Origin: Vibrio gazogenes
Lineage (GTDB): Bacteria > Pseudomonadota > Gammaproteobacteria > Enterobacterales > Vibrionaceae
Length of the DNA: 64,000 nt
Direction of reading: 5' to 3'
Assembly: GCF_023920225.1 (NCBI RefSeq)
Contig: NZ_CP092587.1
Location: forward strand, 2,542,001 to 2,606,000
The notes below the pieces were generated by a model, which was given only the letters and a program-made list of their open reading frames with translations, was not told where the DNA came from and did no database searches. Made by a program: the position numbers and the translations under genes. Positions within the stretch are counted from its first letter, which is position 1. Each line of letters opens with the position of its first letter. Shown in pieces: positions 43,074 through 62,417 of the stretch.

Positions 43074-43250
43074 ATTTTCATCCTCTATGGGGTTAGGCCT
43101 CCACATCCCCCATGCATCCGACCTTTGAACAATTTCAACAAAGGCACCCCGGAACACGTGTCGGAATGTGTGTGATTTAAAGAAGTAAATGGAAGGAATG
43201 CAATCTGACTCATACCTCTGTGCGAGATAGGAATCGACTCTGTCATTCCG
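43074..43250 (-). promoter_or_regulatory. rpsB mRNA leader, probable S2 autoregulatory element
   Basis: The leader between the predicted start (near 43250) and rpsB is about 177 nt. It contains a hairpin CCGACACGTGTTCCGG-like element and, near the ribosome-binding site, GGGGGATGTGGAGGCC followed by TAACCCC, which can pair as GGGG/CCCC. In E. coli, S2 represses rpsB-tsf through its leader; conservation here is inferred from length and structure only. Confidence 0.5.
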
Positions 43251-50356: not shown

Positions 50357-51466
50357 TTACTGACTGATATATTCCACAACATTCAGTCCAAACCCACCCA
50401 ATGCATGATATTTTTTATTCGCGGATGAGAGCAACTTCATATCGGTGACGCCTAAGTCAGCAAGGATTTGCGAACCAACACCGACACGACGGGATGTCCC
50501 TTGTTTTTTTGCCATTGCAGGTGCTTCACCTTTATCCTGCAACTCAAACATCTTGACCCGATGAATAATCAGTTCCGAAGACTCTTCATTGCCGAGCAGA
50601 ACTAACACTCCGCCTTCAACACTAATACGTTTCATCGCATCTTCAATACTCCAGCTCCGATCGGTATTCCGATCACTATGAAGTACATCCGTGAACGTGT
50701 TAATCAGGTGAACCCGGACCAGAGGAACATCCTGACCCTCCTTCTCTTTGACTAATGCATAGTGAACCTGATTATCGATGACATCACGATAAGTGATTAA
50801 ATCGAATTCACCATGAGCGGTTGGCAACTGACAAGTCGCAACACGCTCAATGGTGGTTTCCGTGTTATTTCGGTATTCAATGAGGTCAGCAATCGTCCCT
50901 AGCTTAATTTGGTGTTTCTCTGCAAAGACTTCCAGATCTGGACGTCTTGCCATACTACCGTCTTCTTTAAGAATCTCGACAATTACCGAAGCAGGCTCCA
51001 AACCCGCTAATCTTGCCAAATCACATCCGGCTTCCGTGTGTCCGGCGCGAATCAATACGCCACCATCTTGAGCAGCAAGCGGGAAAATATGACCGGGTTG
51101 AACAAGATCAGAAGCCTTTGCATCAGATGCAACCGCAGCCTGAACCGTCCGGGCACGATCTCCGGCTGAAATCCCTGTGGTAACGCCTTCAGCAGCTTCA
51201 ATCGAAACCGTAAAATTGGTGGTAAACTGGGCGTTATTATCTTGAACCATCGGTGCCAGTCCCAAACGCTGACAACGCTCTTTAGTCATCGTCAGACAAA
51301 TCAGCCCCCGCCCATGCGTTGCCATAAAATTAATCGCTTCTGGTGTAATATGCTCTGCGGCAATAATCATATCACCTTCATTTTCACGATCTTCATCGTC
51401 CATCAGGATAACTATTTTACCCTGACGAATATCTTCGATAATTTCTTGGGGGGTGCTAATTGCCAT
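50357..51466 (-). CDS. ribB: DHBP synthase with degenerate GTP cyclohydrolase II-like domain (RibBX type)
   Basis: The N-terminal half (residues 1-200) is 3,4-dihydroxy-2-butanone 4-phosphate synthase: [32 protein letters not shown] and [19 protein letters not shown] are intact. The C-terminal half aligns with GTP cyclohydrolase II but lacks its zinc site: where active RibA has RVHSEC and CDC cysteines, this protein has [19 protein letters not shown]. It therefore matches the hybrid RibBX type, active as RibB only; a separate ribA should exist elsewhere in the genome. Automatic annotation as bifunctional RibBA would be misleading. It lies between ribE and ribH. Confidence 0.9.
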
Positions 51467-58757: not shown

Positions 58758-60047
58758 TTAACCTGCGATATATTTTACAACAAAAATCGCAGCCATGAAC
58801 CACACGCTGAGTGAAACATGACGGGCTTTACCACTTAAAAGTTTAATCACCGCATATGAGATAAACCCTAAAGAGATACCTTCTGCAATTGAAGATGTAA
58901 GAGGCATCATTAAACAAGTCACAACAACGGGGGCAGCCTCTGTGAGATCACGCCAGTCAATACCAACCAACCCTGATAGCATCAGAATAGAAACATAAAG
59001 GAGTGCACCAGCGGTTGCATAGGCGGGAATCATCCCTGCAAGAGGCGCAAAGAATAAAGCAAACAGGAAGAGAATTCCAACAACAACAGCAGTCAATCCT
59101 GTTCGTCCACCTGTCGCAACACCAGCAGCACTTTCAATAAAAGAGGTCGTATTCGATGTTCCGAACAATGCACCCGTAACTGTTGCTGAAGAATCAGCCA
59201 ATAACGCCCGGTTCAGACGAGGAATTTTTCCATCTTCACCAATTAGATCTGCTTTTTGAGCGACACCGACTAATGTTCCGGCAGTATCAAACAGATCCAC
59301 GAACAAGAATGCAAATACAACCGAGATCATCCCAACATCTAATAACGCTGAGAAATCGAGCTGTAAAAATGTCGGAGCAATACTTGGTGGCATCGAAACC
59401 ACACCGGCCCAGTGAACATCACCAAGCATCAAGCCAATGGCACTGATCGCCAGAATAGAAATCATCACACCGCCTTTTACGTTGCGATAAACCAGAGCGA
59501 TAGTGAGAAAGAAACCGAGAGCACCTAAAACACAGTGAAGCGAGGTAATATTGCCAAGAGAAACCAGTGTGGCTGGATTATCAACGATGATACCTGCATT
59601 TTTTAATGCAATAAAAGCAAGAAATAAACCGATACCCGATGAAATGCCGGTCCTTAAAGACATCGGAATTGAATTGATAATCCATTCTCGAATCTTGAAT
59701 AAACTCAGTATGATGAACAATACGCCTGAAGCAAATACCGCAGCCAAAGCAACCTGCCACGTATACCCCATGCCAAGCACGACGGTATAGGTGAAAAAGG
59801 CATTCAGCCCCATCCCCGGCGCCAGCGCAATCGGATAATTCGCGATAAATCCCATGATGAAGCAACCAACAGCTGCCGCCAAACAGGTTGCAACAAAAAC
59901 GGCGCCACGATCCATTCCCGTATCGGCTAAGATCGCTGGATTAACAAAAATGATATAAGCCATGGTCAGAAAAGTCGTGATTCCCGCAATGACTTCTGTT
60001 CGCATGGTTGTGCCATGTTCACTCAGTTTAAATAGCTTCTCGAGCAT
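58758..60047 (-). CDS. NCS2 (AzgA-type) purine permease
   Basis: The 429-aa protein has about 13-14 hydrophobic segments and begins FKLSEHGTTMRTEVIAGITT, with the AzgA signature ALAPGMGLNAFFTY, then SLRTGISSGIGLFLAFIALK and FLFVDLFDTAGTLVGVAQ with GALFGTSNTTSFIESAAGV. It resembles E. coli GhxP/GhxQ and PurP-type importers of guanine, hypoxanthine or adenine; the exact base cannot be decided from sequence. A PurR box lies just upstream and gpt just downstream, which favours guanine/hypoxanthine/xanthine salvage. Confidence 0.88.
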   Translation of the reverse strand: MLEKLFKLSEHGTTMRTEVIAGITTFLTMAYIIFVNPAILADTGMDRGAVFVATCLAAAVGCFIMGFIANYPIALAPGMGLNAFFTYTVVLGMGYTWQVALAAVFASGVLFIILSLFKIREWIINSIPMSLRTGISSGIGLFLAFIALKNAGIIVDNPATLVSLGNITSLHCVLGALGFFLTIALVYRNVKGGVMISILAISAIGLMLGDVHWAGVVSMPPSIAPTFLQLDFSALLDVGMISVVFAFLFVDLFDTAGTLVGVAQKADLIGEDGKIPRLNRALLADSSATVTGALFGTSNTTSFIESAAGVATGGRTGLTAVVVGILFLFALFFAPLAGMIPAYATAGALLYVSILMLSGLVGIDWRDLTEAAPVVVTCLMMPLTSSIAEGISLGFISYAVIKLLSGKARHVSLSVWFMAAIFVVKYIAG

Positions 60048-60067: not shown

Positions 60068-60083
60068 AAGTAAACGGTTGCGT
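60068..60083 (+). promoter_or_regulatory. PurR operator upstream of the purine permease
   Basis: AAGTAAACGGTTGCGT matches ANGCAANCGNTTNCNT at all defined positions except one (T for C). It lies 21-36 bp before the permease start, downstream of a TATAAT -10 (60105-60100, minus strand), where it would block transcription. Confidence 0.7.
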
Positions 60084-60099
60084 AAACGATTGGGAGGCG

Positions 60100-60105
60100 A
60101 TTATA
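60100..60105 (-). promoter_or_regulatory. -10 box of the permease-gpt promoter
   Basis: A perfect TATAAT lies on the minus strand, about 53 bp before the permease start. No good -35 at 16-18 bp is seen (TAGAAT at 60128-60123 is the best), so activation or a weak promoter is likely. Confidence 0.5.
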
Positions 60106-60271: not shown

Positions 60272-60301
60272 AAAAAAACGCCACTTCACATGAAGTGGCG
60301 T
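60272..60301 (-). terminator. Strong orphan terminator upstream of the permease
   Basis: On the minus strand ACGCCACTTCA and TGAAGTGGCGT form a perfect 11-bp stem, followed by seven U. No coding gene on the minus strand lies before it in the 600 bp up to pepD. Confidence 0.85.
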
Positions 60302-60503
60302 TGGAAAGGGATTAAAATCTTCCAAAAAATTAGGGGTGAACAAAAATGTCCGAGCTGCAAGTTTCCATCGTGTCCAATTCTACAACAGACCATCAGAGCA
60401 AATTGGTCTAGTCTGAGTCCTGAATCTCCCCCCCATCAACTTCGCAGGGGAATGCTTCATTCAGGCAACTCAATAAATGGGTTAAATAGAAGCATCGCAA
60501 ACA
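60272..60503 (-). ncRNA. Candidate structured RNA between pepD and the purine permease
   Basis: A sigma-70 promoter (TTGTAA 60537-60532, 16-bp spacer, TATATT 60515-60510) predicts a minus-strand transcript from about 60503 to the terminator at 60272, roughly 230 nt. Inside, CCTGAAT (60465-60459) pairs with ATTCAGG (60425-60419) and encloses TCCCC/GGGGGGA; AGACCA pairs with TGGTCT further on. No credible ORF is present. I recognise no known sRNA or riboswitch. It is either a stand-alone sRNA or a terminated leader upstream of the permease-gpt operon. Confidence 0.45.
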
Positions 60504-60509
60504 CTGTTG

Positions 60510-60537
60510 AATATACCATAAAGAAAATTTATTACAA
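60510..60537 (-). promoter_or_regulatory. Promoter of the structured-RNA candidate
   Basis: TTGTAA and TATATT on the minus strand are separated by 16 bp in an AT-rich stretch. No gene other than the RNA candidate is downstream. Confidence 0.5.
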
Positions 60538-60769
60538 TAATAACGTAATCAAAACCAAATAAAGTGAATTGAGACACTTTTTATTGAGATTTGTGTAATT
60601 TAATTACCAAAAACAAACCAAACGATGAAAATTTATTCCTTAATCACAACAGTTATAGTCAATACAACTCATATCTGATTTTTTAAAAAAACATGTCTCA
60701 TGCTATCCCCTGCATGATGAGGGTGATATTCTCTTGCTATCGACTGGTGCGCATGGTCTTCAGTACTCT

Positions 60770-60823
60770 CGATTTCTTAAGTACAGACGATTTCTCAAGT
60801 ACAGACGAATTCTTAAATACAGA
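60770..60823 (+). repeat. 18-bp tandem repeat, three copies
   Basis: CGATTTCTTAAGTACAGA (60770-60787), CGATTTCTCAAGTACAGA (60788-60805) and CGAATTCTTAAATACAGA (60806-60823) follow each other without gaps. A decayed fourth copy (TGAAACATGAAG) may follow. Confidence 0.92.
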
Positions 60824-60861: not shown

Positions 60862-60919
60862 TTTTTATCAACCACATTGTTTTTCATCAACCATATTGTT
60901 TTTTCATCAACCATATTGT
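60862..60919 (+). repeat. 19-20-bp tandem repeat ending at the pepD start region
   Basis: Three copies of a TTTTTCATCAACCATATTGT-like unit occupy 60862-60880, 60881-60899 and 60900-60919; copies 2 and 3 are identical apart from one T. The array stops 4 bp before the pepD ribosome-binding site. Confidence 0.92.
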
Positions 60920-60935
60920 GGAACAGGAGTCTTCA

Positions 60936-62417
60936 GTGTCAGAATTCCAATCCGAAATTAGTCATCTCTCACCATCTCTCGTCTGGACGTTTTTCGATAA
61001 AATATGTTCTATCCCACACCCTTCATATCATGAAGAAAACTTAGCTCAATACATTATCGAGTGGGCCGAGGAACAGTCACTTGATGTCAGACGTGATCCG
61101 ACGGGTAATATCTTTATTAAGAAACCAGCAACATCAGGCATGGAAAACCGCAAGGGTGTCGTGCTACAAGCACACTTGGATATGGTGCCACAAAAAAATG
61201 AGGAGACCGTACATAACTTCGCACAGGATCCAATTCGTCCTTATATTGATGGTGACTGGGTCACCGCTCAAGGCACCACTCTCGGCGCAGACAATGGGAT
61301 CGGGATGGCAACTTGCCTTGCTGTTTTGGCTTCAGACAATATCCAACACGGTCCTTTAGAAGTACTGTTAACGATCAATGAAGAAGCTGGTATGACCGGT
61401 GCATTTGGTCTGGAGCCGGGTTATCTGGAAGGAGAAATCCTGCTGAATACCGACTCTGAACAGGAAGGTGAAGTTTACGTCGGATGTGCCGGAGGCATTA
61501 ACGGCTTGCTCGCTTTTGATATTGAACGCAGTCAAGTTCCGGCAAATCATGTGGTTCGCAAACTCCAGCTTAAAGGTCTCAAAGGCGGCCATTCTGGTTG
61601 CGATATCCATCTCGGCCGAGGCAATGCTAATAAACTATTTGCTCGTTTTTTGGCACAACATGCCGAGCCTCTGGCGTTACGATTGATTGATTTTCAAGGC
61701 GGCTCACTGAGAAATGCCATTCCTCGTGAAGGCACTGTGACCTTATGCCTCCCTGAAGAAAATGTCTCCAAACTGACTGAAGCATTCCAACATTTCACCG
61801 CAACGATTCGTCAGGAGCTGGAACAAACAGAAGGCAATATCATCACCGAATGCCATGACGTTGAATTGGTTCCGGAGCAGCATCAGGTAATGGATTTACC
61901 GACTCAGCAACGTTTCATTGCAACACTCAATGCAAGCCCCAATGGGGTGATCCGTATGAGTGATGATTTTCCTGGTGTGGTCGAAACGTCACTAAATCTG
62001 GGGGTCGTCAAAACTGATGCTTCAACTATTTCTATCCTCAGCTTGGTCCGTTCTTTAATCGACTCCGGTCGTCAACAGGTAGAAAGCAGTTTGAGATCAA
62101 TTGCCGAACTCGCAGATGCGACAGTCGATTTCTATGATGCTTATCCCGGTTGGAAGCCTGACACGAATTCCGCCATTATGGCTATCTTCAGAGAGCAGTA
62201 CGAAAACATCTATGGTCATAAACCGAATATCATGGTAATTCACGCAGGCCTCGAATGTGGCTTATTTAAGCGCCCATACCCAAATATGGATATGGTGTCG
62301 TTCGGTCCGACGATTAAGTTCCCACATTCCCCTGATGAAAAAGTGCAGATCAGCACGGTTCAGCAATTCTGGGAACAAATGATCGTTATGCTGAAAAGCA
62401 TCCCTGAAAAAGATTAA
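60936..62417 (+). CDS. pepD: Cytosolic beta-alanyl-histidine dipeptidase (peptidase D)
   Basis: PepD is an M20 zinc peptidase that hydrolyses Xaa-His and other dipeptides. The 493-aa protein shows ICSIPHPSYHEE, the metal site VLQAHLDMVPQ, TTLGADNGIGMA, LLTINEEAGMTGAFGL (catalytic Glu pair), NTDSEQEGEVYVGCAGG and the C-terminal IHAGLECGLF and PHSPDEKV. The GTG at 60936 is selected because CAGGAG ends 7 bases upstream and the protein then begins MSEF like E. coli PepD; a GTG at 60918 precedes that ribosome-binding site. Confidence 0.94.
   Translation: MSEFQSEISHLSPSLVWTFFDKICSIPHPSYHEENLAQYIIEWAEEQSLDVRRDPTGNIFIKKPATSGMENRKGVVLQAHLDMVPQKNEETVHNFAQDPIRPYIDGDWVTAQGTTLGADNGIGMATCLAVLASDNIQHGPLEVLLTINEEAGMTGAFGLEPGYLEGEILLNTDSEQEGEVYVGCAGGINGLLAFDIERSQVPANHVVRKLQLKGLKGGHSGCDIHLGRGNANKLFARFLAQHAEPLALRLIDFQGGSLRNAIPREGTVTLCLPEENVSKLTEAFQHFTATIRQELEQTEGNIITECHDVELVPEQHQVMDLPTQQRFIATLNASPNGVIRMSDDFPGVVETSLNLGVVKTDASTISILSLVRSLIDSGRQQVESSLRSIAELADATVDFYDAYPGWKPDTNSAIMAIFREQYENIYGHKPNIMVIHAGLECGLFKRPYPNMDMVSFGPTIKFPHSPDEKVQISTVQQFWEQMIVMLKSIPEKD

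What the first reader, a model, noticed from the sequence alone, without database searches (positions are those of the whole stretch)
60272..60537. Unrecognised structured RNA or terminated leader upstream of the purine permease
A minus-strand promoter, nested helices (CCTGAAT/ATTCAGG around CCCC/GGGG) and a very strong terminator form a complete RNA gene of about 230 nt with no ORF. It lies directly upstream of the permease-gpt operon, so a ligand-sensing attenuator is an alternative to a trans-acting sRNA. I know no family that matches.
Basis: partly seen in the sequence, partly recalled or inferred. Interest (0 to 1): 0.62.

Follow-up and report, generated by a model that had tools for sequence, protein, structure and literature searches.

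The report
VcdR regulatory RNA without its peptide
The stretch encodes a small regulatory RNA of Vibrio bacteria that is known from the cholera bacterium as a two-in-one RNA (regulator plus tiny protein); here, and in some other Vibrio lineages, the tiny protein appears to have been lost while the regulator part has been kept.

Summary
In detail: a minus-strand promoter, a terminator and about 230 nt between them without a conserved ORF. The RNA is the local descendant of vcdRP (Vcr082), the dual-function RNA described in V. cholerae (PMC8672173). It lies between pepD and the permease as vcdRP does and keeps promoter, CACCCC seed block and terminator. A covariance model built from 33 vcdP-bearing relatives, window clade excluded, finds it at E = 2.8e-9, once in its genome. 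Missing are the 27-30 aa ORF vcdP (no match in the genome at E <= 0.1), the known 5' half, and most of the CRP box. The published paper reports seed and ORF conserved in all seven species tested. Of 29 loci that I read because they had the tail but no strong VcdP hit, 25 lack an intact recognisable vcdP (one, G199, keeps a remnant); a two-gene tree needs four losses. Best reading: a base-pairing sRNA that represses ptsG and ptsHI and no longer makes the citrate-synthase activator. It is not a permease leader: the permease has its own TATAAT and PurR box. Covariation does not support the 5' helices. Function is inferred, not measured.

The parts
60272..60502 (-). VcdR-type small RNA, predicted 231 nt
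   Evidence: promoter to terminator; start placed with the offset (7 nt after -10, one of four tried) that gives 306 nt, vcdP 104-193 and CCCC end 232 in L225, the published V. cholerae numbers
60510..60537 (-). sRNA promoter: TTGTAA, 16 nt, TATATT, TGG before -10
   Evidence: same type at the same place in vcdP-bearing loci
60544..60559 (-). decayed CRP box (TTTGGTTTTGATTACG) at the position of the CRP box of relatives
   Evidence: 6 of 10 half-site bases match, counted by eye
60419..60465 (-). clade-specific helix CCTGAAT/ATTCAGG with inner CCCC/GGGG
   Evidence: no covariation support
60338..60351 (-). small hairpin GGACA-TTTT-TGTTC just before the seed (GAACA..TGTTC in many relatives)
60333..60338 (-). 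CACCCC seed; CCCC at 60336-60333 (nt 167-170 of the RNA)
   Evidence: R1 model match 60364-60272, E 2.8e-9
60301..60325 (-). TTGGAA/TTCCAA hairpin after the seed
60272..60302 (-). rho-independent terminator, 11-bp stem plus T run
60100..60105 (-). TATAAT of the permease's own promoter
60068..60083 (-). PurR box ACGCAACCGTTTACTT of the permease-gpt operon
   Evidence: 13 of 14 specified bases; consensus recalled
58758..60047 (-). permease (orthologue of VC2278)
   Evidence: called purine permease in the finding and by recall; no family search made
60918..62417 (+). pepD (orthologue of VC2279), divergent neighbour
   Evidence: name by synteny and recall

Best explanation
The RNA at 60502-60272 (minus) is the descendant of the vcdRP gene in the V. 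ruber clade, reduced to its base-pairing half. Transcribed from its own promoter and ended by its own terminator, it presents CACCCC in a single-stranded stretch between two small hairpins, pairs (probably with Hfq) with GGGGT-type sequences in the 5' regions of ptsG and ptsHI mRNA, and lowers PTS sugar uptake. The VcdP peptide that activates citrate synthase in V. cholerae is gone and the CRP box has decayed, so uptake control is uncoupled from the citric acid cycle arm and probably from cAMP. Shown: descent, retained seed and terminator, missing ORF. Inferred: transcription, Hfq binding, targets, effect on uptake, loss of CRP control.
For: Same gene order pepD - RNA - permease in relatives; VC2278 and VC2279 (= pepD) flank vcdRP in V. 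cholerae. Model R1, built without the window clade, hits 60364-60272 with 61.7 bits, E 2.8e-9, and G000 only once, E 8.1e-8. L225 reproduces the published VcdRP geometry (306 nt, vcdP 104-193, CCCC end 232) with one start offset. vcdP is absent from G000 at E <= 0.1, while 175 of 213 R1-positive genomes of the window's genus have it at E <= 1.6e-6. In the clade the seed block (99% column identity, columns 161-180 of A3) and the terminator (96-100%) are the most conserved parts, against 83-95% in the first 120 columns. In G000 ptsG keeps GGGGTG about 60 nt before its start, duplex -17.2 kcal/mol, better than all 51 control starts; ptsH keeps TTGGGGTA over its Shine-Dalgarno sequence.
Against: No transcript data. 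treB shows no pairing site in G000 (-8.5 kcal/mol, 38 of 51 controls as good), nagE is weak (-12.7; 15 of 51), and ptsH by energy alone is not exceptional (-13.8; 11 of 51). The ptsG site may lie outside the mRNA. Part of the R1 score comes from the terminator: G271 was a false hit of that kind at E 2.9e-5. CRP-box decay is uneven in the clade (8 of 10 in G153, G285 and G168, 7 in G181).
Confidence: 0.85

Rival explanations
1. The RNA is a purine-sensing leader (riboswitch or attenuator) of the permease-gpt operon that terminates early unless a ligand allows readthrough.
For: It lies upstream of the operon on the same strand and ends in a strong terminator.
Against: A separate TATAAT (45 of 46 regions) and a PurR box of 12/14 or better (41 of 46) lie between terminator and permease, and that gap varies from 127 to 463 nt among the Vibrionaceae rows; no Rfam riboswitch match; RNAalifold shows no covarying stem except the terminator in the family tails; in V. 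cholerae the orthologue is a separate 306-nt sRNA.
Confidence: 0.04
2. The 5' half, new in this clade, has given the RNA a different job (new targets or a protein-binding platform), so that it is no longer mainly a PTS regulator.
For: The 5' half finds no blastn match (E <= 1) in vcdRP regions outside the clade, folds well and is kept in six genomes; the CRP box is degraded in G000, G151 and G174; two of four published targets have no clear site in G000.
Against: Seed block and terminator, not the 5' half, are the most conserved parts; covariation is nearly nil.
Confidence: 0.12
3. The RNA is a CsrB-type sponge that titrates CsrA through its GGA motifs.
For: Six GGA triplets in the 231 nt.
Against: Several of them change among clade members and there is no CsrB or CsrC match in Rfam.
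Confidence: 0.02

Closest known systems
VcdRP (Vcr082) of Vibrio cholerae, PMC8672173
   Same: Locus between permease and pepD, promoter type, seed block with four C in the 3' part, terminator.
   Different: No vcdP ORF, 231 instead of 306 nt, unrelated 5' half, decayed CRP box; treB site not found.
SgrS/SgrT of enterobacteria (as compared in the Discussion of PMC8672173)
   Same: A PTS-repressing sRNA whose peptide ORF is kept only in a subset of species.
   Different: Other gene, activator SgrR, and a peptide that acts on PtsG; no sequence relation was tested.
Spot 42
   Same: A CRP-linked carbon sRNA without a conserved peptide (recalled).
   Different: The Rfam Spot_42 model gives 16.3 bits here, gathering score 80.

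Membership tests
VcdRP dual-function RNA | location between VC2278 and VC2279 (pepD) orthologues | tested here: met
VcdRP dual-function RNA | conserved 3' block with four consecutive C | tested here: met
VcdRP dual-function RNA | rho-independent terminator | tested here: met
VcdRP dual-function RNA | vcdP ORF of about 29 codons | tested here: not met
   none at the locus, none in the genome at E <= 0.1
VcdRP dual-function RNA | CRP box upstream of -35 | tested here: not met
   6 of 10 at that position in the window (by eye); 7-8 in some clade members
VcdRP dual-function RNA | pairing with ptsG, ptsHI, nagE, treB | tested here: inconclusive
   ptsG good, ptsH plausible, nagE weak, treB none
VcdRP dual-function RNA | Hfq binding, RNase E processing | not testable with these tools
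   wet work
Purine riboswitch or permease leader | aptamer match or shared transcript with the permease | tested here: not met
   no aptamer match; separate promoter signals. Shared transcript itself not testable here
CsrB/CsrC | family model match and conserved GGA loops | tested here: not met

The most novel reading that the evidence does not exclude
Loss of the peptide from a dual-function RNA is a recurrent route in Vibrio: vcdP was dropped several times (four on the two-gene tree) while VcdR stayed, and in the window clade the freed 5' half became a new structured domain and the gene left CRP control, giving a carbon-uptake regulator with new inputs or targets.
Probability: 0.3. Interest if true: 0.65.

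Novelty: new variant of a known kind. Interest (0 to 1): 0.5.

Why it matters
The published study took the joint conservation of seed and ORF in its seven species as a sign that VcdR and VcdP depend on each other. The survey here shows Vibrio genomes that keep the VcdR tail without an intact VcdP, some with relics of the ORF, so the two functions can be separated by evolution. That makes it testable, by comparing natural species, what the peptide contributes and when it can be dispensed with.

Tried and rejected
Rfam at E-value threshold gave only chance matches (lowest E 0.69). A CsrB-like reading was dropped because GGA motifs differ within the clade. A 15-codon frame from TTG (..ETCSSDIFVHP) is open in 5 of 6 clade members but broken by a one-base insertion in G181 and has no Shine-Dalgarno sequence; not taken as a gene. 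The regular expression for the seed missed it in many rows; the aligned tails were used instead. L044 (no CCCC in the tail) and L052 (an extra CCCC upstream) were left out of model R1, 33 of 35 tails used. R1 also gave weak matches to L040, L044, L070 (Shewanella) and L052, E 0.0015 to 0.036.

29 of the 38 genomes of the window's genus that were R1-positive but lacked a strong VcdP hit were read; the nine others (G226, G077, G230, G238, G304, G273, G232, G211, G221; R1 E 1.4e-4 to 0.0096) were not. Seven of the 25 called vcdP-less (G297, G262, G328, G268, G291, G074, G030) had a weak genome-wide VcdP match (E 0.001 to 0.09, places not in the capped list); a profile scan of the 25 loci themselves found no match of E <= 0.03 except in G199 (E 0.0031, an 18-residue stretch inside the RNA, counted as a remnant); the 0.04 match in G289, and the one in G132, lie outside the RNA. 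In one search the promoter pattern failed in 35 of 79 rows; the CRP statements cover only the 44 rows with a promoter. In one search the script took a wrong internal start for nagE in G025 and G112, and one common seed was used for G151, G153, G168, G181 and G285 although G153, G285 and G181 differ from it slightly; only the G000 energies are used in the report. The 51 controls are ORFs of 150 codons or more from the window, first ATG taken as start. On the tree only two losses (G132/G289, G149) sit inside well-supported vcdP-bearing groups (1.0 and 0.98); the other two could be one or more.

Full report
What is there. On the minus strand of 60537-60272 lies a complete transcription unit: TTGTAA - 16 nt - TATATT, a 231-nt RNA (predicted start 60502) and an 11-bp terminator followed by T7. 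The scanner found no more promoters or terminators than shuffles give; what makes them credible is that they recur at the same place in related loci. The sequence occurs once in its genome.

Identity. A DNA search of 197 Vibrionaceae genomes gave near-full-length relatives in G151, G181, G153 and G168 (78-93% identity) and short matches to the 3' part, or to the terminator alone, in others. Reading the pepD-permease intergenic regions of named and unnamed relatives showed an RNA with a conserved 5' block, an ORF of 27-30 codons, a block TTTTGTTCACCCCTATATTGGAA and the same terminator. This is VcdRP (formerly Vcr082) of V. cholerae: located between vc2278 and vc2279, 306 nt, VcdP of 29 aa at nt 104-193, seed within nt 223-232 with four C, repressed by CRP, pairing with ptsG, ptsHI, nagE and treB (PMC8672173: abstract, passages, the first parts of sections 10 and 15, and section 32 read). 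VC2279 is pepD (passage of PMC3136459), and a CRP site GGTGATTAAAATCACA lies between the two genes (passage of PMC6050953). Genomes with that box next to TTGTAAT (3 of 329) were read: in L225 a start 7 nt after the -10 gives vcdP 104-193, CCCC end 232 and length 306, the published numbers; four offsets were tried. Thus the comparison family is VcdRP.

Independent test. Model R1 was built from the 3' tails of 33 vcdP-bearing loci, without the window clade. It finds the window at 60364-60272 with 61.7 bits, E 2.8e-9; L003-L006, L013, L032 (the same sequence as L006, V. ruber) and L048 score 54-60 bits. In 329 Vibrionaceae genomes it has a match at E <= 0.01 in 286, a single one in the window genome. 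Its only base pairs are the terminator, where 5 of 9 pairs show double changes.

What is missing. A profile of 20 VcdP peptides matches 278 of 329 genomes at E <= 0.1 but not the window genome. Among the 213 R1-positive genomes of the window's genus, 175 have VcdP at E <= 1.6e-6 and 38 do not. I read 29 of these 38 loci: 3 (G136, G319, G302) have a diverged ORF; 1 (G271) is a false terminator hit without pepD or permease; 25 have the tail next to pepD, the permease or gpt and no intact recognisable vcdP. A profile scan of these 25 loci found one partial match inside the RNA, in G199 (E 0.0031, 18 residues), a remnant. By eye, G265 and G323 keep a relic TTG AAA GGT TTA CCC AGT GGT GTT TGA, G254 a similar one without start, and G297, G262 and G328 a stretch like the last codons. 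On a tree of pepD and permease pieces (87 loci, 79 distinct sequences) four losses suffice; two sit inside well-supported vcdP-bearing groups, while the nodes joining the other lineages have support 0.0 to 0.74, so the true number may be lower or higher. The paper says that ORF and seed were conserved in all species tested; seven are listed. Searches of the held library listed no title or abstract start that reports loss of vcdP; of those papers only PMC8672173 was opened.

How it works. In six clade genomes the CACCCC lies between a GGACA/TGTTC hairpin and a TTGGAA/TTCCAA hairpin, followed by the terminator (not in every single MFE fold: G151 folds otherwise after the seed). In the window genome ptsG has GGGGTG about 60 nt before its start (duplex -17.2, 0 of 51 control starts as good), ptsH has TTGGGGTA over its Shine-Dalgarno sequence (-13.8, 11 of 51 as good; GGGGT in 1 of 51 controls), nagE is weak (-12.7; 15 of 51) and treB has no site (-8.5; 38 of 51). 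I therefore infer repression of ptsG and ptsHI, with nagE uncertain and treB unlikely.

Control. Where the promoter pattern was found (44 of 79 rows), the 16 vcdP-bearing loci have a CRP box of 7-9 of 10 bases centred 14-15 nt before -35. Eight other vcdP-less loci (G254, G265, G323, G297, G262, G328, G157, G199) keep 9 of 10, G149 and L048 8. In the window the sequence at this position matches 6 of 10 (by eye); G151, G174 and G311 have no box there; G181 and G268 have 7; G153, G285 and G168 have 8. CRP control is thus doubtful in the window species.

Not a leader. Between terminator and permease lie TATAAT and a PurR box in nearly all regions examined (45 and 41 of 46).

Structure claim. The helix CCTGAAT/ATTCAGG is present in the clade consensus fold but varies by G-U changes; 1 of 70 pairs has a double change and the covariation term is +0.42. 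It is not seen in the sister genomes G174 and G268 (alignment, by eye).

Verdict. The gene is a vcdRP orthologue by descent but fails the dual-function membership test (no ORF); it most likely works as VcdR does. New variant of a known kind.

Noticed in passing
L018, L021, L034, L010, L059, L225 and other vcdP-bearing loci, 5' part of vcdRP: Two GGA motifs lie 5' of vcdP, the first in the loop of a 4-bp stem that changes on both sides (CTCA/TGAG, GCTC/GAGC, GTTC/GAAC); 43 of 44 distinct sequences that could be scored (of 48) form all four pairs, stem offset chosen for best fit. They look like CsrA sites; the main text of the VcdRP paper does not contain the word CsrA. Not seen in the window RNA.
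   Followed up: partly
L030, L031, L017, L049, L051 just before the permease start: The element CTCCAAGGAAC.GAG of the vcdRP 5' part recurs before the permease start codon in two named Photobacterium loci (L049, L051) and three unnamed ones.
   Followed up: no
L147, L149, L150 (G254, G265, G323): Relic of vcdP (TTG AAA GGT TTA CCC AGT GGT GTT TGA in G265 and G323, a similar stretch in G254), with seed, promoter and CRP box intact.
   Followed up: partly
L163 (G199): An 18-residue stretch inside the RNA still matches the VcdP profile at E 0.0031; decayed or strongly diverged ORF.
   Followed up: partly
L142, L143, L148 (G136, G319, G302): Diverged 31-aa VcdP with a changed middle part but a similar N-terminus (FW) and the C-terminal GFGY.
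   Followed up: no
L050 and L040: V. rumoiensis has a 384-nt pepD-permease gap in which no R1 match was found; V. hepatarius keeps only a decayed version (R1 E 0.0015).
   Followed up: no
window 60770-60823 and 60862-60919: Two arrays of three 18-nt and three 20-nt tandem repeats between the RNA promoter and pepD.
   Followed up: no
window 43092-43192 (-) and 51266-51369 (+): Rfam matches t44 (80.2 bits) and Vibrio antisense RNA AS9 (69.7 bits).
   Followed up: no
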